From NCBI RefSeq assembly GCF_032191465.1, contig NZ_JAQOUE010000001.1:1550001-1614000 (forward strand): DNA of 64,000 nucleotides. Direction: 5' to 3'. The translations under genes and the position numbers were made by a program. The notes beneath the pieces are model-generated. The model did not search any database. It was not told where the DNA came from and saw only the letters and a list, made by a program, of their open reading frames with translations. Within the stretch, counting starts at the first letter, position 1. The number at the start of each line of letters is the position of its first letter. Of the stretch, positions 7,095-26,110 are shown in pieces. The DNA is from Candidatus Nitronereus thalassa. GTDB taxonomy: Bacteria; Nitrospirota; Nitrospiria; Nitrospirales; UBA8639.

Positions 7095-7598
7095 ATGCTA
7101 ACACCAAGGATCACAATCTCTTTTCTCCTCTGCATCTTGCCCCTTGTCATGTTGCTCGGAAACACTAGCCTCGCCGAGAATCTCCTCCATTCTTCCTATA
7201 AAGGAGCAGCGAAGGTTGATCCTGACACTCCGAATCTCACGTCGCTCAATGTCCGCATGAGTCATCAAGCTATTGAGGCTCCAGAAGGGTTAGTGAAAGA
7301 AAGCATGGATTTACCGGGAGTTCGCGCCGCGCGATCAATGATCGCGCCAACCCCCAAAGCCGCAATCCTCGAAGATGACAATCACCATCGCGTGGTGATT
7401 CTTTCGGCATCCGAGGAGGGACAGATTCATGCGCAAGTGCTAGAAGATCTCGACTTTTCTCAAAAAATTCCTTTCATTGCCGCCTGCGCCGACCAACGTG
7501 GCTGTGCTTTTAACCGCCAACCCGTCACCGGGGGGCTGGCCTGCGTGGCCATCTGTGTGCAACAAGCCCTTGACCCTGAGCACGAAGTGGCGCCATGA
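7095..7598 (+). CDS. Secreted protein of unknown function, overlaps the helicase-like gene
   Basis: 167 residues. The N-terminus has a typical signal peptide (basic start, hydrophobic core ISFLLCILPLVMLLGNTSLA, cleavage after SLA likely), so the mature protein should be exported. The mature part has no family I recognise. It contains several cysteines near the C-terminus (AACADQRGCAF and GGLACVAIC) that could form disulfides in the periplasm, and a central VVILSASEEGQIHAQVLEDL segment. Its TGA overlaps the ATG of the next gene (ATGA at 7595-7598), which implies coupled translation with a protein that appears cytoplasmic. No strong ribosome binding site precedes the ATG at 7095. Confidence 0.7.
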   Translation: MLTPRITISFLLCILPLVMLLGNTSLAENLLHSSYKGAAKVDPDTPNLTSLNVRMSHQAIEAPEGLVKESMDLPGVRAARSMIAPTPKAAILEDDNHHRVVILSASEEGQIHAQVLEDLDFSQKIPFIAACADQRGCAFNRQPVTGGLACVAICVQQALDPEHEVAP

Positions 7599-9100
7599 AA
7601 TTGCTTGATCTCCTTCAGCATTACGCCAAACAATTAACCGAGGAAAAAGAGGAGGCGATTGCCCAGGGTTTGGACGACCCCATCGAATCTCCTCTCGCGA
7701 ACAAGCTGGGGAAAGCGGGCAATTTACATCTTTATTCTCTTACGCTCCCTTCCCGAATGACCGTGCTGGAAGATATCCCTCTCACAATTGTTCCACCCGG
7801 TGATCTTGAACCCACAGAAGGCTATTCACTCCGTCACCTTGGTGGAGAAATTCTGATCCAAACCGTTGATTCCTTGGGGCAATCTCTCGACGACAACACC
7901 ATTGTGCCCGACACTTCGGGGTTTTTTTTGACGGCGACAAAACGACTAGAGGAGATGGCCGCGAAACCCGAGTCCTATTCGCTGGGCCCTGCCGAACGGT
8001 TGACCCCCTGGCTTGACCCTGAACAGGCCGGCGGTGATGGGTCCGCGCGAACCGGGGCTTCCACAGCAGTCCTGTCCACGGTTTGGAGTGATGACGCCTC
8101 TGCCCGGTGGAAGAAACTTGCCACGATAGCGGTGGATCTCATGCGCAAAAATAAACGCGTATTGCTGATTGCGCCAAGTCATCACATGGTGAGTGATTTA
8201 TTAGGATTTTTTGCAAAAACGTTTCGGGATGCCCCGCTGCCGTATAAAAGTTTGCTGAGTTGCTATGAAATCCCCGTGCTTTCTCATGGGTCGGGCATCT
8301 CCTTGCAAGAATTGGGATATGAATCCCAAATGCATTCCTTTTTCGCCGCATCCCGATCGCATAAAACGGCCCTGCAACAAAAGTATGATCGTTTTCGTGA
8401 ACTCACCCCCATCCTGGCCTATAAGGGTCAGAAACAACGCGACCTCAATGAGGTCAAATTACTGGAATGGCGATTACTCGCGGAAGTGAGTGGGTTTCAA
8501 GGTAAGATCAAAGACATCGACAAAATCTTAGCCGACTATGAAAAACTGCCAATTTGGAAACGACTCGGCATGCAAGCGATTGGGAAGAACATACAAACAC
8601 TTGCTGAATATCGAGTGATCTACACGGAAAAAATCGCGGGGCTGATGAAAGAAGTCGAGATTGCCCAAGCCCGCATTCGCGAACTCGTACCCGAAGCTGC
8701 CATCCCGAAAGAGATGAGGCCGGAATACGAAGAACTAAAGGATGATATTTCGCGCCTTGGCGGCACGAAAAAAATTCGCGAAATGCTCTCGGCAGGGGAA
8801 GGTACCAATCGACAAGCCTTTATTCAAAACAAAAAACTTGTGGCAGCCACCCCGGCGCGAATAGTATGCGATCCACTATTTAAACGAGTACGCTTTGACG
8901 TGCTGATTGCCGAAGACGCCCCTAATATTCCTGCACCACTCTTATTAGGTGCCGCAGGATTGATTCGGGAACAAATCATCATCGCCGGCAATACCCAAGA
9001 CCTCACGTCGACCCACGGAGCTTCAGCAATCAGTGGTCTCTGGCGACAATCGTGCCTTGAGCCCAATCCCGCACCGTCGAAGACGGCATCATCATCGTAA
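7595..9100 (+). CDS. Degenerate SF1 (UPF1/Dna2-like) helicase domain protein lacking a P-loop
   Basis: 501 residues. From about 175 the layout follows helicase domain 1 of DNA2/UPF1-type SF1 enzymes. KRVLLIAPSHHMVSDLL matches motif Ia. A long coiled-coil insertion follows (about 265-390). KLVAATPARIV and then FDVLIAEDAPNIPAPLLLG stand where the family has the DEAD/DEAS Walker B, and IIIAGNTQDL stands for the GDxxQL motif III. The P-loop region, where GPPGTGKT should be, reads VLSTVWSDDASARWKKLA and has no Walker A. The second RecA domain is absent. The frame is intact and not otherwise decayed, so it may be a kept, catalytically inactive scaffold rather than a pseudogene. The start is the ATG overlapping the secreted-protein stop. 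Function unknown; proximity to the ATPase genes is suggestive only. Confidence 0.65.
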   Translation: MKLLDLLQHYAKQLTEEKEEAIAQGLDDPIESPLANKLGKAGNLHLYSLTLPSRMTVLEDIPLTIVPPGDLEPTEGYSLRHLGGEILIQTVDSLGQSLDDNTIVPDTSGFFLTATKRLEEMAAKPESYSLGPAERLTPWLDPEQAGGDGSARTGASTAVLSTVWSDDASARWKKLATIAVDLMRKNKRVLLIAPSHHMVSDLLGFFAKTFRDAPLPYKSLLSCYEIPVLSHGSGISLQELGYESQMHSFFAASRSHKTALQQKYDRFRELTPILAYKGQKQRDLNEVKLLEWRLLAEVSGFQGKIKDIDKILADYEKLPIWKRLGMQAIGKNIQTLAEYRVIYTEKIAGLMKEVEIAQARIRELVPEAAIPKEMRPEYEELKDDISRLGGTKKIREMLSAGEGTNRQAFIQNKKLVAATPARIVCDPLFKRVRFDVLIAEDAPNIPAPLLLGAAGLIREQIIIAGNTQDLTSTHGASAISGLWRQSCLEPNPAPSKTASSS

Positions 9101-9761: not shown

Positions 9762-9974
9762 TTAGGTAAATGATTCAGAATTTGCCGTAATATGCGCGGC
9801 AAAAGGATTGGGGTCCTTTTCAGTAGGTGCAGGCGGGACTAAAGCCTCCGGCGTTTTGGCCATTTTCACTTCACCCGATGCAGAGGGTTCTGTTTCTTCT
9901 TCTGCTGAGTCTTCCAAGCTTTGATCTTCTAATTCTCTATGCTTAAACGAAGAGATCTGTTGGAGGTGTGCCAT
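9762..9974 (-). pseudogene. 3'-end remnant of a two-part ATPase gene
   Basis: The 70-codon frame ends with EEETEPSASGEVKMAKTPEA and PNPFAAHITANSES, which line up with the C-terminal tail of the intact ATPase at 11764-14397 (EEETEPSAPGDVERSNTPEV and PNPFAVHLSASSES). Similarity runs from the stop codon back to about 9970 (SSFKHRELEDQ against RSVKQAYEEDQ) and then ends next to the methyltransferase gene. Only the last ~65 of about 880 codons survive, with no domain, so this is a truncated copy. The frame is still open, but nothing suggests it is expressed. Confidence 0.8.
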
Positions 9975-11763: not shown

Positions 11764-14397
11764 TTACGTTGTCGATTCAGAAGATGCTGAAAGATGCACC
11801 GCAAATGGGTTGGGCTTCTTCTCAATGGGTACAGGTTGGACTGAAACCTCTGGCGTGTTTGACCGTTCTACGTCACCCGGTGCAGAGGGTTCTGTTTCTT
11901 CTTCCACCGAATTGTTCAAAGTTTGATCTTCTTCATACGCTTGTTTGACTGAACGAATCTGGATATCCACATCTTCACAAGCCAGCAACCGTTTTAAATC
12001 CCACTCGGTCACCCAGCTCTTGACCCACTCACGCATGCGTTTGCCTTTGAAATGGGCGGGAGTCGATTCCTGAATCTGCATTGAGGCATGCCGATCATCA
12101 CCATAGACGGAATGATGAAGTTGTCGAATCTTATGATACGCTTCCTCCACCCGGACTTCAGTCAATTCTCGAAGAGGAGTAGTATCCCATTCGATAAATC
12201 GCACCCCTTGCTCAGCCTGCTTTTCAAGTTGAGCCGTGGTTCCGACTTTCCCCAACGCAGCGAGCACGCGAGCCCGATCTCCCTTGGATTCAAGAATTTC
12301 GGATTGAAAATCATCCGTCAATGCGACGACGGCGGCCAGCCCTGGAATCCCCACCTCTGGAGAGGCCCCTAGCATTCGCGATAACTCCGCATAGGCTTTG
12401 AGCCGTTGCACAAACGAATATCGCCCTATCAATTCAGCCTCATCCAGACACACGACCCATCCACGATACCCGGCCAGGCGCATCAGTCTGGCCGCGAAAC
12501 GAAACCGTTGGATCGCCAAATCCACCTCACGGATTCTTGCAAACGAGTAGTTTTGGAACACGCCACATTGCCGAAGGCAGGCCCGAATCTCATTCATGGC
12601 CAGTGGTTCACCACTCCAAAATCGCGTGACACGATGACACATTTCAGGTTCGGTGCTCATACGTTGAAATAAAAACATAGTCGCGGCAAATCGCTGATCC
12701 ATGCCATTGCGATAATCATGTACCCAATCAGATAATTCTTGATACCCCGGACTCCACACATCGAGTCGATTGGCTAGTTCCACCAATACTTGACCGGTTT
12801 GCCCTGGCATGACCGCGCTTTCCACGGCAGCCTGAAATACTTTCAATGGATGATATAACGGCGTTTCCTTACTGATGATGACGCGGCTACAAATACATTG
12901 TTGCTCTAGGGCAAGATGTTGCAAATAGGCCAGTACATGAGACTTCCCCGTGCCGAAGCCTCCCTCCACGATCATGCCTCGAGTCGATTGGCCCTCCGCC
13001 GCTTGCTGATCTACTGCCGTTAACATCCGCTCGAACCGACCTTCGACTTCCGGTTGATAACACCCCATGACTCGAATCACATCAAGGTTGGGCACCCCTG
13101 CTCGCAATCCTTCGATAACTCGACGATCCCGCAAAGATGCAGCCCCCTGGTGAAGAGGAGTTGCTCCAATCCCAATGCTATGGTGACGGACATTCGCCGG
13201 AGATGCGGACAGTCGCACCATGGGTGCGAGAGGGTTTTGTTGATATTTATCACGAACATCATCCCAAATGCGTAGCTTCAACGCTTCATAGCGATCCAGC
13301 CCTCGACGACGATCACTCAAAAACTCCTTTGGTGCCAATACCACAATCAAACATCCCGCATGGTCATCCACGCTATCGATGAATTGGCGCAAAGTGTCAT
13401 ACAGATCGAGTACGGCCGCCGAACTGTAATAAAATGTGGAATCGATTTCAGCGGGTTTCTTTGCAACCAAGTATCGCGACAAATCCAATGTCAACAGAAG
13501 CCCAGTCTTTTTCGCCCGCCGCAACCAATGCGTGAGGGACGTCAACATGTGTCGACCATTGTGACGAGAGATCTTTTGAAAGATTAACGCGTGCTTCACG
13601 CTGGAAATTAGTCGCAATTCCCCTCGCAACCATTCCTTGACCGATTGAGCGACATGGAGATCCGCGTCACTGGATTGTAATTGGGCCGTACACAGACTGA
13701 TCATGGCCATCCGGAATTCCTGGCAAAGATTCAAATCAGCTTCAATCGTACGCTCAATCCACGTTTGCATGTCTTTCCAGAGCAGGGCCTCTTTACGATC
13801 ATTGAGTTGGGCAAGTTTTGTCAGACTGAAATCTTCCCATTTATCAGGAACCTGATACCCTTTTTCACGAACGAGGTCGACCAAAAAATTATAGGCAAGT
13901 TCATCCCAATCTATTTGCTTCGCAACCTTGAAAAACAATCGATCCACCATATGCATCTTGGTAAACCGGGCGTCGACTCTGGCAAAGAGTAGGCCTTCCT
14001 CTTTTCCCAGAGCACTCAATCCAGACTGAAGCGCCGGACGGGTCTCTTGGCATGACCCAATCGCAAATTTGACCGAGCTTCCCCCATCCCGAATATATGA
14101 CCGCACGTATTCTTGCTTGAGAATTCGCAACCAATCCTCCACCAACATTTCATCCAATTCGGGTTCCGCTGGCTCTGAAGATTCAGCCAAGGCTGAAGGG
14201 GCAGTCGGTTTGGGCATAGAGACAGAAGGGGCAAAAAAGTCGCGCAAATCCGCGGGACGTCTTTGAGCTACTTCGACCACAGATTCGTCAGGAATTTCGG
14301 CTACAGCCTGAGGCGCTTCGCCCCTCGAGCCTTCCCCGGACCTTGCCGCCTGAATGCGGTTTAGCGCTTCCACAATCTCACTCATGCCAATGTTCAT
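11764..14397 (-). CDS. Two-part BREX-type (DUF2791/BrxD-like) ATPase, copy 1
   Basis: 877 residues from the ATG of MNIGMSEIVEALNRIQ (an ATG at 14385 and a GTG at 14472 are alternatives). Residues 1-80 form a linker rich in Ala, Pro and Glu that copy 2 lacks. Residues 90-380 resemble an ATPase domain without a P-loop: GGSSVKFAIG at 105-114 stands where Walker A should be, and LLLTLDLSRYLV is Walker B-like. Residues 430-720 form an intact ATPase: GGFGTGKS at 479-486, SKETPLYHPLKVFQA, VVCLDEAE at 648-655 and VVALTDDFQS at 690-699. The tail is acidic. Family memory places it with BREX-associated ATP-binding proteins, but no BREX methylase, PglZ or helicase is nearby. It matches copy 2 along the whole core and ends about 190 bases from a tRNA-Leu pseudogene. 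Confidence 0.85.
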   Translation of the reverse strand: MNIGMSEIVEALNRIQAARSGEGSRGEAPQAVAEIPDESVVEVAQRRPADLRDFFAPSVSMPKPTAPSALAESSEPAEPELDEMLVEDWLRILKQEYVRSYIRDGGSSVKFAIGSCQETRPALQSGLSALGKEEGLLFARVDARFTKMHMVDRLFFKVAKQIDWDELAYNFLVDLVREKGYQVPDKWEDFSLTKLAQLNDRKEALLWKDMQTWIERTIEADLNLCQEFRMAMISLCTAQLQSSDADLHVAQSVKEWLRGELRLISSVKHALIFQKISRHNGRHMLTSLTHWLRRAKKTGLLLTLDLSRYLVAKKPAEIDSTFYYSSAAVLDLYDTLRQFIDSVDDHAGCLIVVLAPKEFLSDRRRGLDRYEALKLRIWDDVRDKYQQNPLAPMVRLSASPANVRHHSIGIGATPLHQGAASLRDRRVIEGLRAGVPNLDVIRVMGCYQPEVEGRFERMLTAVDQQAAEGQSTRGMIVEGGFGTGKSHVLAYLQHLALEQQCICSRVIISKETPLYHPLKVFQAAVESAVMPGQTGQVLVELANRLDVWSPGYQELSDWVHDYRNGMDQRFAATMFLFQRMSTEPEMCHRVTRFWSGEPLAMNEIRACLRQCGVFQNYSFARIREVDLAIQRFRFAARLMRLAGYRGWVVCLDEAELIGRYSFVQRLKAYAELSRMLGASPEVGIPGLAAVVALTDDFQSEILESKGDRARVLAALGKVGTTAQLEKQAEQGVRFIEWDTTPLRELTEVRVEEAYHKIRQLHHSVYGDDRHASMQIQESTPAHFKGKRMREWVKSWVTEWDLKRLLACEDVDIQIRSVKQAYEEDQTLNNSVEEETEPSAPGDVERSNTPEVSVQPVPIEKKPNPFAVHLSASSESTT

Positions 14398-14723
14398 CCT
14401 TTCCAGGGATTCATAAGCCTCTGATTTGGAAAATAGATCATTTTTAAGTTCACGGTTTGGTGTCACAATCACCCATTACCAAGGGTTTTGCCAGGTTCAT
14501 AGGGCTTATGGAACTTTATCGGTTTTTCCTACCATTTCTTGATACTTTTTTCCCTTCCGCCTCCTAAAAACCTTAGTCACCAATGCCAAAATTTTTTCCC
14601 GTATGGGATGGTACCACCACCACAAGATCTGGTAGTGTGCATTCAGGACAACAAATTTACATCGCGATTGATGAAAGATTTCTCCTCAAGCCAATTCTTT
14701 CTCTTTGGAAGGGCCAAAAAATC
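14398..14723. other. Divergent intergenic region
   Basis: About 325 bases between the start of ATPase copy 1 (minus) and the secreted-protein gene (plus). Its left end could code if the GTG at 14472 is the ATPase start. I find no clear promoter, repeat or small gene. An open frame continues upstream of the ATG at 14724 but carries no signal peptide or known domain. Confidence 0.5.
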
Positions 14724-18384: not shown

Positions 18385-18834
18385 CTATCGCACTTTCGCA
18401 CCAGGCGCTGATTCATTGAGGATAAGCCAGTACAGACCAAGCTGCTGAACAGCCTGAGTAAATTCTACGAAATCCACGGGTTTTCGAACATAACTATTGG
18501 CCCCAAGTTTATAACTTTTCATCAAGTCCTGTTCCTCTTTGGACGAGGTCAAAATCACCACCGGCAAAAATCTCGTGCGATCGTCAGCCCGCAATCGTCG
18601 CAAAACTTCCAACCCATCGATTTTAGGAAGTTTTAAATCGAGAAGAATAAGCTGAGGCATCACACTTAAATCCCGTCCAGCATGAACCCCGGTACCAAAC
18701 AAATATTCCAAGGCTTGAACCCCGTCCCGCGCAATAACCACCTGGTTGAGAATATTATTTTTTCCTAATGCCCTCATGGTCAGTTCCTCATCATCCGGGT
18801 GATCTTCAACCAACAAAATGACTTTTTCACTCAT
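18385..18834 (-). CDS. CheY-like response regulator (Rcp1-type)
   Basis: 149 residues, a single receiver domain. ILLVEDHPDDEELTMRAL carries the acidic pocket, MPQLILLDLKLPKIDGLEVL the phospho-acceptor aspartate, PVVILTSSKEEQD the threonine/serine switch, and ANSYVRKPVDF the lysine. The HPDDEELTMRAL and LDLKLPKIDGLEVLRRLR patterns are typical of Rcp1-like regulators that work with bacteriophytochrome-type or similar kinases. There is no output domain, so it signals by protein contact. Its ATG overlaps the stop of the kinase gene upstream (ATGA), which marks them as a pair. Confidence 0.95.
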   Translation of the reverse strand: MSEKVILLVEDHPDDEELTMRALGKNNILNQVVIARDGVQALEYLFGTGVHAGRDLSVMPQLILLDLKLPKIDGLEVLRRLRADDRTRFLPVVILTSSKEEQDLMKSYKLGANSYVRKPVDFVEFTQAVQQLGLYWLILNESAPGAKVR

Positions 18835-20150
18835 ATCTTGCCTCCCTCATTTTCCAAGGTAAAGAAAAAGGTGGCCCCTTTTCCTACAGACGCCTCGGCC
18901 CAAATACGGCCCCCATGACGCTGAATAATTCTATGCACGGTCGCAAGGCCGATTCCGATACCCTGGAACTCACTGACGGCATGTAATCGCTGAAACGCCC
19001 CAAACAATTTATCCGCATACGTCATATCAAAGCCCACCCCATTGTCCCTGACAAAAAACACAGGCTGGGCATAGTGATACGTCATTCCCAGTTCAATGCG
19101 AGGGAACTCTTCATGACTCGTGAATTTCCATGCATTCCCCAATAAATTTTCCAAGATCACTCGGGTTAAGTCCGGGTCGGCCGTCGTACGAAGATTGTCC
19201 ACCACCACCACCTCCACCTGACGGTCCGGATCGGCTTTACTCAGGTCCATGGCAATCGAACGCCCGATCGCTGAGAGATCCACTGATTCAAAAGTTAATT
19301 CAGCACGAATGAGCCGAGCCAGATTCAGCATGGCATCAATGAGCTTCGCCATGCGCTGGCTTGCCTCACGTACCCGTCGTAAATACTGCTTGCCGGTCTC
19401 ATCAAGTTTGTCGTGATAGTCGTCCAAGACGGCCTGACTAAATCCATCGATTCCTCGCAATGGTGCCCGCAAATCGTGGGAAACTGAGTAGCTGAATGCT
19501 TCCAACTCTTTATTAGAAGCCTCCAATTGAGTCGTACGATCCAATAGATCCGCATTGAGCTTGCGCATATGCTCTTCGACTCGTTGACGCTCAGTAATTT
19601 CCCGAGTCAGGCCAGCATTGGCCTCTTCAAGCTTGGCAGTTCGTTCATGTACTCGATGTTCAAGATCCAAATGAGCCTGACGCAATTCTTCTTCGACTCT
19701 TAAACGCTCACCCATTTGACGCTGCAGCTCAAGATTGGCCTCCCTCAGGGCTGACGTACGTTCCATGACCCGCTGTTCCAACTCCATGGATGTGCGACGA
19801 AGCTTACTAATAACCAGGCCTAACCCACCTAACCAAATCACAATCAATAAGGCAGTCCATCCATACAGGTTGTACCAATCCTGAAATCGGACCCGTTGAA
19901 CGATATCGCTGGAATACAGGCCCTCGAGTTCATCCAACGCTTTTGAATACACCTGAACATCTGCCACAGCCATCGACTGAATCAAATCGCCCTGAAGCTG
20001 GGATACCTGCAGCAGCATGAGGGCCAAGCTCGAACAAAACACCACCGTGAGCACCAGCACCATGCGCTCATACAGCGGATCCATAAATCGAGTGAATGCA
20101 TGATTCATAACTTGACCGATTTCCAACACACGTTCACGGAGGGTTCCCAT
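18831..20150 (-). CDS. Membrane histidine kinase with coiled-coil linker
   Basis: 439 residues. Two membrane segments (about 30-48, LVLTVVFCSSLALMLLQV, and 97-114, WTALLIVIWLGGLGLVI) bracket a short external loop of about 45 residues. A long coiled coil follows with three related stretches (ELEQRVMERTSALREAN, DLEHRVHERTAKLEEAN, LLDRTTQLEASN). The phospho-histidine box is FSYSVSHDLRAPLRGIDGF; the ATPase domain has NLLGNAWKFT, VRDNGVGFDM and GIGIGLATVHRIIQRHGG. The small external loop suggests sensing in or near the membrane. It is coupled to the receiver gene downstream and begins 24 bases after the stop of ATPase copy 2 on the same strand. Confidence 0.95.
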   Translation of the reverse strand: MGTLRERVLEIGQVMNHAFTRFMDPLYERMVLVLTVVFCSSLALMLLQVSQLQGDLIQSMAVADVQVYSKALDELEGLYSSDIVQRVRFQDWYNLYGWTALLIVIWLGGLGLVISKLRRTSMELEQRVMERTSALREANLELQRQMGERLRVEEELRQAHLDLEHRVHERTAKLEEANAGLTREITERQRVEEHMRKLNADLLDRTTQLEASNKELEAFSYSVSHDLRAPLRGIDGFSQAVLDDYHDKLDETGKQYLRRVREASQRMAKLIDAMLNLARLIRAELTFESVDLSAIGRSIAMDLSKADPDRQVEVVVVDNLRTTADPDLTRVILENLLGNAWKFTSHEEFPRIELGMTYHYAQPVFFVRDNGVGFDMTYADKLFGAFQRLHAVSEFQGIGIGLATVHRIIQRHGGRIWAEASVGKGATFFFTLENEGGKI

Positions 20151-20174: not shown

Positions 20175-22508
20175 TTATCCGACCTGCGCCCCGACCAACT
20201 CCGTCGGGGACGCAACGTCCTCAGTACCAACACCAGCCTGATCCTCTTCGGCGGGAGTTTCGAATTCAGCATCTTCCATATAACTGGGTCGCAGGGGCGT
20301 CACTTCGAGATCAACCGTTTCTTCAGGAGCCAATCGCTTGAGATCCCATTCCGTGATCCATCCTTTCACATATTCCCGCATGCGAGTGCTGGACAACCGC
20401 TCAACAGAGGGAATCGTTGGCGGAGCCCAATGATAAGCAGAGGCATGAATCGTCCGAACTTTTTCTTGGGTTTCTTCAATCATTCGATCGTAGGGACCGA
20501 CCAAACGGGCCCGTTCACTTTCAATCAACCGCATTCCAGCCTCTGCTTGATCGGCCAACAGCACATCGGTTTCCGATCGTCCTTCTCGTAGTTTGTTTGG
20601 AATTTTTTCCCGGTCGCCCTTGTCTTCCAAAATCGCACTTTGAAAATCATCCGTCAGCGCAATGACTGACGCGAGACCTGATTTATATCCAAGATCCGCA
20701 TAGCTCGATGCATCCAATCCACCCATCCATCGCGCGAGCTCGGCATAGGACTTTGCTCGTTGCTTGAGAGAGTAACGCCCAATAATTTCTGCCTCGTCAA
20801 TGAGTAAAATCCATCCTGAATATCCCGAAGCCACCATCAATCGGGAGGCGAATTTAAATCGTTGCAAGGCCAAATCCGTTTGAGAAATTTTTTCAAATGT
20901 GTAGGGATTCGACGCACTACAGGCCTGGAGATACCGCTTGAGTTCGACGACACCAATTGGGTCTCCGGACCAGAAGCGGACAAGACGGTGGCTCAATTCT
21001 CGATCATTGGCCATTCGTTCATACAAGAATAATGTGGCGGCAAATCGGCTATCCAACTCGCCACTGGGTCCATGCACCCACTCATAGAAGTCTGCGTATT
21101 GGGGACCCTGAAAATTCAGCTCTCCTGCAACTTCAGCCAATGTCCCACCGCGCTTCCCAGGGATCAAGATCGTTTCAATTGAGGCACGGTAGATTTTGAC
21201 CAGGCTGTACAACGGGGTTTCTTTACTAATCACAATACGGCTACAGGCAAAATTCTTCTCCAATGCCAACTCTTGAAGATATTCCAAGGTATGAGATTTT
21301 CCAGTCCCGAATCCCCCATCCAACAAGATACCTTTCGTTGTCGTACCTTCGGTCACGCTTCGCTGGGCGTTCTCAAGCATGCGCCGGAATTGTCCTTCAA
21401 TTTCAGGTTGAGCGCACCCCAACACTTGGACGGCATCTCGATTGGGCACTCCGGCCCGTAAGGCTTCGATCGCCCGGCGATGCAACATCTCCTCCCCATT
21501 AGCGACCGGCGTTCCTTGGGTAAACCCGCTCGCGGCAACCCCGGGAGATGCCGAGTCCTTTGAAATCCTGACCAAGGGTGCAAAGGGGTTTTGCCGACGC
21601 TTATCTCGGACATCGTCCCAAATCCGAAGCTTGAGTGCCTCATAACGATTGAGTCCGCGCCGCTCATCTTTCACAAACTCCTCTGGGGCAATCACCACAA
21701 TCAAGCAACCTTCGAGTTCATCCGTTCCATCAACAAATTGACGCAAAACTTCATAGGCGTCCATGGCCGCCGCTGCCGTATAACTCAAGGCTGCATCAGG
21801 TTCTTTTGACCGTTTCACTACCATATACTGACTAATATCTAACGTAAGGATTAACCCACCTTTGCCCACCAATCTCACCCAGTAGACCAGCGAGGCCAGC
21901 ATATCCCTGGCATTGTGTCGCGCGACTTTTTGGAAAATCAGTGCATCTTTGAGTGCGGAAATCAAACGCAGTTCCCCACAAAGCCATTCTTTCACGGCAT
22001 TCGCCAAAAACGGGTTTGGGTCACCACTATCAAGTTGGGCCAGACACAGACGGACCATAGCCATTCGAAATTCTTGGCACATGCCCGAATCACGATAAAT
22101 GGCTTTTTCTAACCAACTCCGGAGCTCACGCCGAAGTAGCATTTCTTCACGATCATTGAGCTCAGCAATGGCTTGAAGGCTAAACGCTGCACGATCATCT
22201 GGCACCTGATATCCGTTTTCAACTAACAGCCGGGATAGGAATAAATGCGCTAATCCATCCCAATCAATTTGTTTCGCAATTTTATGAAATAAACGATCCA
22301 CCATATGAATCTTGGTATATTGCGCATCGGCCTTAGCAAATACGTAGGCATCGTTTTTCGCCATTTTGCTGAATAGCTGCGGCAAGGCACGACGAACCTC
22401 TTCCTCGGCGCTCACGACAAATTTTACCGCAGATCCTCCCTGGCGGAGATAACTTTGGAAATACTCTTTCCTCATGACCTCCAACCAATCCAGAGATGAC
22501 ATGTTCAT
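20175..22508 (-). CDS. Two-part BREX-type (DUF2791/BrxD-like) ATPase, copy 2
   Basis: 777 residues from the ATG of MNMSSLDWLEVMRKEY, chosen because AGAGAGGAT lies before it and the homologous core begins there; the open frame reaches 22820 with unlikely sequence. Residues 10-290 form an ATPase-like domain with GGSAVKFVVS (24-33) in place of Walker A, a Walker B-like LILTLDISQYMV (219-230) and IVVIAPEEF. Residues 360-640 form an intact domain: GGFGTGKS (398-405), SKETPLYSLVKIYRA, ILLIDEAE (567-574) and VIALTDDFQS (615-624). A helical part and an acidic tail follow. It is collinear with copy 1 apart from that copy's N-terminal linker. The coiled-coil gene lies upstream and the kinase gene 24 bases downstream, all minus strand. 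Role unknown; a DNA- or stress-related motor is a guess. Confidence 0.85.
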   Translation of the reverse strand: MNMSSLDWLEVMRKEYFQSYLRQGGSAVKFVVSAEEEVRRALPQLFSKMAKNDAYVFAKADAQYTKIHMVDRLFHKIAKQIDWDGLAHLFLSRLLVENGYQVPDDRAAFSLQAIAELNDREEMLLRRELRSWLEKAIYRDSGMCQEFRMAMVRLCLAQLDSGDPNPFLANAVKEWLCGELRLISALKDALIFQKVARHNARDMLASLVYWVRLVGKGGLILTLDISQYMVVKRSKEPDAALSYTAAAAMDAYEVLRQFVDGTDELEGCLIVVIAPEEFVKDERRGLNRYEALKLRIWDDVRDKRRQNPFAPLVRISKDSASPGVAASGFTQGTPVANGEEMLHRRAIEALRAGVPNRDAVQVLGCAQPEIEGQFRRMLENAQRSVTEGTTTKGILLDGGFGTGKSHTLEYLQELALEKNFACSRIVISKETPLYSLVKIYRASIETILIPGKRGGTLAEVAGELNFQGPQYADFYEWVHGPSGELDSRFAATLFLYERMANDRELSHRLVRFWSGDPIGVVELKRYLQACSASNPYTFEKISQTDLALQRFKFASRLMVASGYSGWILLIDEAEIIGRYSLKQRAKSYAELARWMGGLDASSYADLGYKSGLASVIALTDDFQSAILEDKGDREKIPNKLREGRSETDVLLADQAEAGMRLIESERARLVGPYDRMIEETQEKVRTIHASAYHWAPPTIPSVERLSSTRMREYVKGWITEWDLKRLAPEETVDLEVTPLRPSYMEDAEFETPAEEDQAGVGTEDVASPTELVGAQVG

Positions 22509-22946
22509 GACGATCCTCTCTTTCCCTTGAAATACGTCCACATGATGTAGGCCAATGCAATCATTAGTTTGCCCCCTTGCGGTATCAGTTGGATCGAGAC
22601 TCGTTGGGAGGAGAAAAAATCGAAGAGCCCACAAGTGGGCACAGAGGGGCAATGCTATCGAATAGTCGAACGTTGCAACCAGACCAACCCTGAAAGGAAA
22701 TTTAAGGTTCCCCTTCTCCTCAGGTCTCTTGGCTTTGCGTCCTGCCCTCTCAGGCAGTTTGCCCTTTCGCCTCCTACCTCTATTACTATTACTATCGGAA
22801 GCATCAAAATTTCCTTGCACAGAAAGACGAGGTGAGAGGGAACAACAAAAACGAACATCATGTTGGCAGGATGTTTAGTCACCATACGCAACCGTATGGG
22901 TCAGAAATCAACTGGTCTGGTCAGGATGGCTGAGAAAGAAGGATGG
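22509..22946. other. Spacer between the coiled-coil gene and ATPase copy 2
   Basis: 438 bases without a convincing gene. It contains a perfect short palindrome (GCCCACAAGTGGGC near 22628) and a simple-sequence patch (CTATTACTATTACTAT near 22785). The open frame upstream of the ATPase ATG covers part of it but has no domain, and other short frames look spurious. The length argues that the ATPase gene may have its own promoter. Confidence 0.5.
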
Positions 22947-23750
22947 TTACGCTGCAGACGTAAAGGAGGTGCCGTAATACGTCCGCAGTCGGCCCCCTTG
23001 CGCAATGACACTCAAGACTTTGGTGGCGTCTTTGATGCCAGTACTGGCATGGAAATGAAGCAGGTGACCCTTTTTTGTTTGATTCACTCCACTTTTATCG
23101 AGAAAGTAGAGATCTCGTGCAAATTCTTGTCGAGTATATTCAAACGTTGGGCGTGGCAACATGGTGAGCAATTCATAAATTTCCATTAACGGAATGACGA
23201 TGCCTGTTCCGAGCAGATGCTTTCCACGAATCCCGACGGCGATAGAATAGGCAGAATACAAGATGGCCAAAAATTCGTGAGGTTTAAATCGATACGGCCT
23301 GGTTTGCAAATCCTTTAAGCGTTTCACCAGTAAGGATGGGCGCAATCGAGTTTCTCGAACGCGGTCAATCGTCACAGCCATCTCTTTAGGGTGAACTCGA
23401 ACCAACGCCGGATAGGCAAACAACGTTCCCTCATGTTCAATCAAATCCACGCCCATTTGTTCGGCCATGGATAACAAGTCCTGCTGGAAGCCTAATCCGC
23501 CCAAATAATCCTCTTCATCAAAATTCCAACTCTGGGTCGTTGAGGCCAGTTCCTGTTGTAATTGCGCGGTGAACTGATTGGCTTCATTGAGAGCATGGCG
23601 AAGCTTTTGGAAGTCACCAACACTGGCCGCCGTCCGAATTTTTTTCACCGCAGTCGCCGCCTCAGCAACGGTTCTCACCAGTAGATCTGAATCTTTTTCG
23701 ATTTTGGCCAAGGTTTGTTCGAGATTTGTTCGCACTTGTTGTTCAATCAT
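22947..23750 (-). CDS. Coiled-coil protein of unknown function, possible partner of ATPase copy 2
   Basis: 267 residues from the ATG of MIEQQVRTNLEQTL. Residues 1-75 are strongly helical with heptad-like spacing (IEKDSDLLVRTVAEAATAVKKI, LRHALNEANQFTAQLQQEL), predicted coiled coil. The rest looks like a compact alpha/beta domain: LGFQQDLLSMAEQMGVDLIE, then LFAYPALVRVHPKEMAVTID, RLRPSLLVKRLKDLQ and FKPHEFLAILYSAYSIAV. No family I can name. It has no membrane segment, so it is cytoplasmic. Same-strand position upstream of the large ATPase suggests a functional pair; the 438-base spacer weakens this. ATPase copy 1 has no such neighbour. Confidence 0.75.
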   Translation of the reverse strand: MIEQQVRTNLEQTLAKIEKDSDLLVRTVAEAATAVKKIRTAASVGDFQKLRHALNEANQFTAQLQQELASTTQSWNFDEEDYLGGLGFQQDLLSMAEQMGVDLIEHEGTLFAYPALVRVHPKEMAVTIDRVRETRLRPSLLVKRLKDLQTRPYRFKPHEFLAILYSAYSIAVGIRGKHLLGTGIVIPLMEIYELLTMLPRPTFEYTRQEFARDLYFLDKSGVNQTKKGHLLHFHASTGIKDATKVLSVIAQGGRLRTYYGTSFTSAA

Positions 23751-23819
23751 CACGCGGTTTCCAAAAAGGCCATGGAGACTGAGGCCCCATATAGGGATTA
23801 GACTTCTTTCTCGGCTACC

Positions 23820-25258: not shown

Positions 25259-26110
25259 CTAATTTTCGCGTTCCGTGCGGCGTAAACTCCGCATCAGTGC
25301 CTTGTCATTGAGGGCCATCTCACTCAGCGCATCCATGATGTGCAAACCTTGAGCTTCCATCAACTCTTTGGCTTTGGCGTATTGCTTGGCATTAAACCGC
25401 GCCACGGTGGGTTGGTTGTTAATCACTTGGCACGCTAACACTCCATCTTCGATTTCGAGTGTGCCCCCTTGATCAATCAACTCTTGCGCCTGGGAAATGG
25501 TGATGCCATGCAACGTGGCAAACTCTTGGATGCCACCAGTCTCCACCATGGACCCATCGGGCATCGTGCATTTGCGTTTAAAGTAGGGTGACCAATCTTT
25601 TCGGAAATCGATATATTTAATATCGCCACCCTTGGCCACAGACCTATCAAGTTTCGAATAATCAAGCCCAAGATTTTTTTGTTTAAGCCGGTCTTGTAAT
25701 TCCTCAGGAAGCCCTCGAAAAAATATCCGTTCCGCCGCATCCGTCAGCGGAATATCGGAATACCGACTAAGTTGTTCCGCCTCCGCGGTTTGGGCTAAAT
25801 CTAGAATCCAGGTGGATTTAGGAGTTTCTCCTGTCGAATCTATCCTGCACACAAACATTCCCCGAGTTACCACGCCACCTGTTTGTGGGTAAGAATAGAT
25901 CCCACCTTCGGCCAATAAGGTCTGCATTTCCTCAATAGGGATTTCGTAACTTGCCCCAAGAATTTTGGCATGATGCTGAATATCTTCCTCTCGGGTCATG
26001 GCACAAACCATCACATTCCCGGGCGGGTCGAAATCCGTGTAATTCTCCAGAATGTTATACAGCTCAGGTTCCTTCTCCGGTTTTAATGGCCGCTTTTTGA
26101 GCTTAAACAT
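25259..26110 (-). CDS. Hypothetical protein (283 aa)
   Basis: A soluble protein with no recognised family. It is charged and well ordered along its length: an N-terminal lysine-rich arm (KLKKRPLKPEKEPEL), a central region with aromatic motifs (IYSYPQTGGVVTRGMFVCRI, DFRKDWSPYFKRKC), and a C-terminal helical part (FNAKQYAKAKELMEAQGLHI). EFATLHGITISQAQELIDQGG looks like a helix-turn-helix-sized module, but no DNA-binding claim can be made. The reading frame is clearly coding and the ATG follows an upstream gap of about 110 bases. It is convergent with the lipoprotein gene and divergent from pyrE. Confidence 0.75.
   Translation of the reverse strand: MFKLKKRPLKPEKEPELYNILENYTDFDPPGNVMVCAMTREEDIQHHAKILGASYEIPIEEMQTLLAEGGIYSYPQTGGVVTRGMFVCRIDSTGETPKSTWILDLAQTAEAEQLSRYSDIPLTDAAERIFFRGLPEELQDRLKQKNLGLDYSKLDRSVAKGGDIKYIDFRKDWSPYFKRKCTMPDGSMVETGGIQEFATLHGITISQAQELIDQGGTLEIEDGVLACQVINNQPTVARFNAKQYAKAKELMEAQGLHIMDALSEMALNDKALMRSLRRTEREN

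What the first reader, a model, noticed from the sequence alone, without database searches (positions are those of the whole stretch)
20175..23750. Two-part BREX-type ATPase with a coiled-coil partner: candidate undescribed system
The ATPase (20175-22508) has a degenerate N-terminal ATPase-like half (GGSAVKFVVS instead of Walker A) and an intact C-terminal half (GGFGTGKS, ILLIDEAE). Family memory places it with BREX DUF2791/BrxD proteins, but no PglZ, BrxB, methylase or helicase of BREX is present. A cytoplasmic coiled-coil protein of no known family lies upstream and a histidine kinase/receiver pair 24 bases downstream, all on one strand. This could be a signal-controlled ATPase machine outside BREX.
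Basis: partly seen in the sequence, partly recalled or inferred. Interest (0 to 1): 0.75.

Follow-up and report, generated by a model that had tools for sequence, protein, structure and literature searches.

The report
Helicase-less BrxD-type ATPase module, Nitrospirota
A bacterium of the phylum Nitrospirota carries a two-part ATPase, one half dead and one half active, with a dedicated partner protein; together they match, gene for gene and in order, the first three genes of a plasmid-borne module that sits beside a BREX anti-phage system in one of its two known hosts, but without that module's helicase, so this looks like an unnamed offshoot of known defence machinery.

Summary
The ATPase (20175-22508, -) is a PF10923 BrxC/BrxD-type protein with a pseudo-ATPase N-half and an intact C-half. 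The partner (22947-23753, -) belongs to no known family, and a histidine kinase and receiver follow 24 nt downstream.

It is not BREX: the genome has no PglZ, and the NCBIfam BrxD cut-off is missed (92.6 against 350 bits).

The real unit is partner + pseudo-ATPase + ATPase. In relatives (genus g4, class of f21) these are three separate, tightly packed genes; in most of family f1 the last two are fused. In g4 the trio is a patchy 3.3-kb cassette at a site that lacks it in sister genomes, without kinase or receiver. Profile comparison shows gene-by-gene, collinear correspondence (weak for the partner) to the first three genes of an unnamed four-gene module on Desulfomonile and Aulosira plasmids. 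Its fourth gene is a BrxHI/SngC-like helicase, and in Aulosira it lies beside BREX-2 genes.

Best reading: a helicase-less, defence-derived AAA+ module, stably kept and duplicated in this family. The kinase link is real in this genus but local. Anti-phage function is inferred, not shown.

The parts
22947..23753 (-). Partner protein (268 aa): N-terminal helical hairpin, small beta domain, C-terminal wHTH-like region; no known family
   Evidence: No Pfam/NCBIfam/PADLOC family; conserved upstream of the ATPase; AF2 pLDDT 87.5; no PDB or viral fold match at E<=0.001. wHTH assignment is inferred from helix/strand order.
20175..22508 (-). BrxD-type AAA+ ATPase (777 aa), fusion of a pseudo-ATPase N-half and an active C-half
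   Evidence: PF10923 E=2.8e-32; halves are separate genes in G013, G021, G025 and G090; AF2 pLDDT 84.8
21511..22508 (-). N-half, pseudo-ATPase: degenerate P-loop at 22410-22439 and Walker B-like strand without Glu at 21831-21854
   Evidence: Motif table of 32 sequences; matches ATPase 1 of the four-gene module, E=3.9e-14, and not ATPase 2
20175..21497 (-). C-half, intact AAA+ ATPase: Walker A at 21291-21317 and Walker B at 20772-20810
   Evidence: Motifs intact in all 32; matches ATPase 2 of the four-gene module, E=4.1e-18
18831..20150 (-). Sensor histidine kinase, 24 nt after the ATPase; lacks the Tll0287-like CxxCH sensor domain present in relatives
   Evidence: HisKA and HATPase_c; relatives carry PF11845; orthology and co-loss
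18385..18834 (-). Stand-alone receiver domain, overlaps the kinase gene by 4 nt
   Evidence: PF00072 E=4.4e-21; dN/dS about 0.014-0.023
11764..14472 (-). Paralogous BrxD-type ATPase (902 aa) with a ~100-aa N-terminal extension; no partner gene beside it
   Evidence: 49% identity over 765 aa; separate, well supported clade

Best explanation
This is a compact ATPase module descended from BrxD-type AAA+ defence ATPases. Ancestrally it had three genes: the partner, a pseudo-ATPase and an active ATPase. In this Nitrospirota family the last two are fused. Proposed mechanism: the C-half binds and hydrolyses ATP, and the dead N-half acts as a built-in second AAA+ subunit, as inactive subunits do in ORC-like rings. 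The partner, with a wHTH-like region and a helical hairpin, recruits the machine to DNA or to a DNA-bound complex. The machine then remodels or marks that target, and any helicase or effector acts in trans. The lineage shares descent with a four-gene, helicase-bearing defence-type module, lacks its helicase, spread as a small cassette in some lineages, and was fixed and duplicated in family f1. In this genus it is encoded close to a histidine kinase and receiver that probably tune it. Shown: gene content, motifs, homology, collinearity, cassette behaviour, purifying selection. Inferred: DNA binding, complex formation, anti-invader role, control by the kinase.
For: PF10923 on both halves. Conserved pseudo/active division of labour in 32 of 32. 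Profile comparison: N-half to module ATPase 1 score 104.8 (15.1 to ATPase 2, 75.9 to BrxD); C-half to ATPase 2 134.2 (122.7 to ATPase 1, 124.2 to BrxD). Partner to module gene 1: E=0.0063, 0 of 100 column shuffles reach it, and E=0.003 with a second alignment. Same gene order, with a BrxHI/SngC-like helicase as fourth gene and BREX-2-like genes next door in Aulosira. Trio as an insertion in g4: 3.3 kb between helicase and downstream gene in G013; the same site holds a ClC channel gene in G004 and that plus a 10-kb ORF in G010, and lacks the trio in G016. The partner is found only where the ATPase is: 17 of 396 phylum genomes, in families f1 and f21. Purifying selection.
Against: No helicase, nuclease, methylase or other effector is linked to it in this genome. 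In f1 it is syntenic, vertically inherited and multi-copy, unlike most defence systems, which come and go. No close relative in plasmids, phages or viral contigs. The partner's match to module gene 1 is weak when taken alone. Only two plasmid examples of the four-gene module were found. No fold match was significant.
Confidence: 0.5

Rival explanations
1. Domesticated regulator: the module has left defence and serves a housekeeping role, such as chromosome-associated or stress signalling, under the control of the kinase and receiver. The receiver docks on the ATPase or its partner.
For: Conserved synteny and 2-3 copies in most of f1. Kinase and receiver under strong purifying selection and the kinase 9-24 nt from the ATPase in g1/g7. 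Kinase absent in g5 strains that lack the locus. A receiver gene also stands near the paralogous locus in other genera. Relatives' kinases carry a Tll0287-like CxxCH sensor domain.
Against: The trio stands alone in g4 and f21. The kinase gap is 363-718 nt in most genera. Co-loss can be one block deletion. The paralogue in the window has no kinase beside it.
Confidence: 0.3
2. Partial BREX type 2 or Shango system whose other genes lie elsewhere in the genome.
For: BrxD and SngB PADLOC models match.
Against: No PglZ in the genome. Only these two PF10923 genes. BrxD cut-off missed. The module is the same, without BREX genes, in two families of the phylum.
Confidence: 0.05
3. The order-wide Ski2-like helicase encoded elsewhere in the genome acts as the missing helicase in trans.
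For: Directly divergent from the trio in G013 and G021; present in this genome.
Against: It is a core gene of the whole order, present also in genomes without the ATPase and absent from the f21 genomes tested. The adjacency in g4 is an insertion site.
Confidence: 0.1

Closest known systems
BREX type 2 BrxD (NCBIfam NF033438) with helicase BrxHI
   Same: ORC/Cdc6-like AAA+ ATPase of PF10923; in BREX-2 BrxD forms a tight dyad with BrxHI (PMC12839542)
   Different: Two ATPase-like halves with one dead, a dedicated partner protein, no helicase, no PglZ; BrxD equivalog cut-off missed
Shango (SngA TerB-like, SngB ATPase, SngC helicase; PMC10250203)
   Same: SngB model matches at E=2.9e-12
   Different: No TerB-like protein and no helicase; a fused pair of ATPase-like halves
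Unnamed four-gene module on the Desulfomonile tiedjei plasmid NC_018026 and the Aulosira laxa plasmid AP018310
   Same: Collinear homologues of partner, pseudo-ATPase and ATPase
   Different: There the first ATPase has an intact P-loop, and a fourth gene encodes a BrxHI/SngC-like helicase; in Nitrospirota no helicase is linked and the ATPases are mostly fused

Membership tests
PF10923 BrxC/BrxD ATPase family | Curated Pfam cut-off met | tested here: met
   112.6 against 22.2 bits; each half separately over the cut-off
BREX BrxD (equivalog) | NCBIfam NF033438 cut-off of 350 bits | tested here: not met
   92.6 bits
BREX system | PglZ present | tested here: not met
   No PF08665 match in the whole genome
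BREX type 2 | BrxHI helicase next to BrxD | tested here: not met
   No helicase gene beside the ATPase in the window or in f1 locus A; the adjacent Ski2 helicase in g4 is an order-wide core gene
Shango | TerB-like SngA and helicase SngC in the same operon | tested here: not met
   No TerB family match for the partner and no helicase in the operon
Four-gene module (Desulfomonile/Aulosira) | Gene 1 homologue upstream of two BrxD-like ATPases in the same order | tested here: met
   gene 1 similarity is weak but above shuffles
Four-gene module (Desulfomonile/Aulosira) | BrxHI/SngC-like helicase as fourth gene | tested here: not met
   Absent after the ATPase in f1, G082 and G114 loci; the G090 contig ends two small genes downstream of the ATPase, so it is open there
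Anti-phage defence system | Lowers phage infection | not testable with these tools
   Needs an experiment

The most novel reading that the evidence does not exclude
An undescribed helicase-less surveillance system made of a DNA-binding partner, a pseudo-ATPase and a BrxD-type ATPase, which arose from a mobile defence module and was brought under two-component control and duplicated in one Nitrospirota family.
Probability: 0.3. Interest if true: 0.7.

Novelty: new variant of a known kind. Interest (0 to 1): 0.5.

Why it matters
The role of BrxD in BREX is unknown; a helicase-loading role has been proposed (PMC12839542). A natural BrxD-type ATPase that keeps a partner and a dead twin but has no linked helicase separates the ATPase function from the helicase, and offers a small system (two or three genes) in which to study what these ATPases do. 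It would also be an example of a mobile conflict module settling into a stable, multi-copy place in a bacterial family.

Tried and rejected
Close relatives in viral contigs, phages and plasmids: none. Ski2 helicase as a module member: rejected, since it is order-wide and independent of the module. Fold searches for both proteins gave nothing at E<=0.001; the ATPase's best hits are generic AAA+ and ORC/DnaA/TnsC/RdrA at E of about 0.01-0.2. A centre outside the phylum for the genome search was not accepted, so other phyla were sampled only through plasmids, phages, viral contigs and one genome-contig scan. The first dN/dS for the partner was out of register and was redone. Promoter and terminator scans were at chance level.

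Full report
What is there. On the minus strand the window carries a 268-aa partner gene (22947-23753), a 777-aa ATPase (20175-22508), a histidine kinase (18831-20150) and a stand-alone receiver (18385-18834). The ATPase is a PF10923 BrxC/BrxD protein (E=2.8e-32), and both halves pass the Pfam cut-off on their own. It falls far below the NCBIfam BrxD equivalog cut-off (92.6 against 350 bits). The partner matches nothing in Pfam, NCBIfam or PADLOC. These two are the only PF10923 genes in the 4.01-Mb genome, and there is no PglZ.

Conservation. Twenty-four of 59 relatives searched (the window's own genome counted) carry the ATPase, mostly with 2-3 copies in family f1. Named hits in genome contigs are nearly all Nitrospirota MAGs; one is labelled Nitrospinota. 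I called and clustered genes in 25 fetched loci plus the window. Locus A reads partner, one or two tandem ATPases, kinase, receiver. Locus C has a longer ATPase (about 840-900 aa) followed in several genera by a membrane protein and a receiver. A maximum-likelihood tree puts the C copies, including the window's second copy, in their own clade (100/98), splits the tandem copies of g5/g6/g9 into two clades, and unites all fused proteins (99/99) with the split pair of G090 outside and those of g4 further out; the root is a midpoint. In all 32 sequences the N-half lacks a P-loop lysine-serine/threonine and the Walker B glutamate, and the C-half keeps both. So the N-half was a pseudo-ATPase before the fusion.

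The unit. In genus g4 (G013, G021, G025) and in the class of f21 (G090) the same three parts are three separate, tightly spaced genes: partner, N-half, C-half. A phylum-wide profile search with the partner finds it in 17 of 396 genomes, all in f1 or f21, and all of them also carry the ATPase. In g4 the trio is a cassette. In G013 a 3.3-kb stretch with the trio lies between a Ski2-like helicase and a downstream ATPase gene; at the same place G004 has a ClC channel gene, G010 has that plus a 10-kb adhesin-like ORF, and G016 has no trio. The helicase itself is a core gene of the order, present also in genomes without the ATPase.

The kinase and receiver. The kinase is 24 nt (window, G001) and 9 nt (G007) from the ATPase, but 363-718 nt away in g5, g6, g8 and g9, with an opposite-strand RNA-binding-protein gene between in L043 and L047. 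They are absent next to the split trios. In g5 the strains without locus A (G011, G014, G017) lack the orthologous kinase, and in G011 the place beside the conserved small gene c12 holds an unrelated gene and an IS element instead. Relatives' kinases have a Tll0287-like domain with a CxxCH motif; the window kinase is shorter (439 against about 570-630 aa) and has lost it. Control of the ATPase by this pair is therefore plausible here but not part of the core unit.

Relation to known machinery. The C-half of G090 led to plasmid hits; in Desulfomonile tiedjei (NC_018026) two BrxD-like ATPase genes lie between a 279-aa hypothetical gene and a helicase that matches BrxHI (E=4e-87) and SngC (E=8e-74). 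The same four genes lie on an Aulosira laxa plasmid directly after what reads as a BREX-2 cluster (phosphatase, ATPase, helicase). Profile comparison gives a collinear correspondence. The N-half matches ATPase 1 (score 104.8, E=3.9e-14), less well BrxD (75.9), and ATPase 2 not at all (15.1). The C-half matches ATPase 2 best (134.2), though BrxD (124.2) and ATPase 1 (122.7) are close. The partner matches gene 1 weakly (E=0.0063; 0 of 100 column shuffles reach the score; E=0.003 with a second alignment), over its middle and C-terminal part (about 127 columns). I take the three matches in the same order as good evidence of common descent, with the helicase lost, or never acquired, on the Nitrospirota side.

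Structure. AlphaFold2 gives confident models for the partner (pLDDT 87.5: long helical hairpin, small beta domain, three helices followed by strands that could be a winged helix) and the ATPase (84.8). Foldseek finds no significant match for the partner in PDB or BFVD and only generic AAA+ similarity for the ATPase, with ORC, DnaA, TnsC and RdrA among the weak hits.

How it probably works. From the anatomy, I propose a pseudo-ATPase/ATPase AAA+ machine recruited by a DNA-binding partner, acting without a dedicated helicase. Purifying selection is strong on ATPase, partner, kinase and receiver (dN/dS about 0.04, 0.07, 0.04 and 0.02; dS is above 1, so these are rough). Whether the target is invader DNA, as expected from its relatives, or a host process to which it has been turned in f1, these data do not decide. 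Patchy cassettes in g4 favour the first; stable synteny and duplication in f1 allow the second.

Verdict. Real and correctly read in the main; not BREX and not Shango; a new variant of the BrxD-type ATPase modules, with an uncharacterised partner family.

Noticed in passing
window 11764-14472 (-) and locus-C relatives L044, L048, L050, L051, L053, L054, L060, L062, L064: The paralogue has a conserved N-terminal peptide (MSxLIxALNRLQ type) and a ~100-aa linker before the ATPase, absent from the locus-A copies; it looks like a docking peptide.
   Followed up: partly
window 9762-9974 (-): A 70-aa ORF that repeats the C-terminal tail of the 11764-14472 paralogue: probably a remnant of a partial duplication.
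   Followed up: partly
window 7595-9100 (+): 501-aa protein with no Pfam or NCBIfam family, conserved in G011 near the same neighbourhood (60% identity); by eye it has degenerate SF1-helicase-like motifs.
   Followed up: no
L109 7871-10817; L055 4944-8176; L113 1839-4782: The order-wide Ski2-like helicase is encoded as two genes in swapped order: the gene for the C-terminal half (Helicase_C, DSHCT) lies upstream of the gene for the N-terminal DEAD half, in this genome and in g4.
   Followed up: partly
window 18831-20150 (-) against L063 5588-7330: Loss of a Tll0287-like CxxCH sensor domain from the kinase in the window's genus and G007.
   Followed up: partly
L111 5055-14600 (-): In G010 a 3181-aa repetitive Calx-beta/adhesin-like ORF with an autotransporter-like end occupies the site where G013 carries the trio.
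   Followed up: no
L040 6538-7341: The partner gene of the sister species G001 carries one in-frame TAA; intact copies exist in the window and in L033.
   Followed up: partly
window 25259-26110 (-): 283-aa protein conserved in the whole family at the same place in most loci, no Pfam or NCBIfam match.
   Followed up: no
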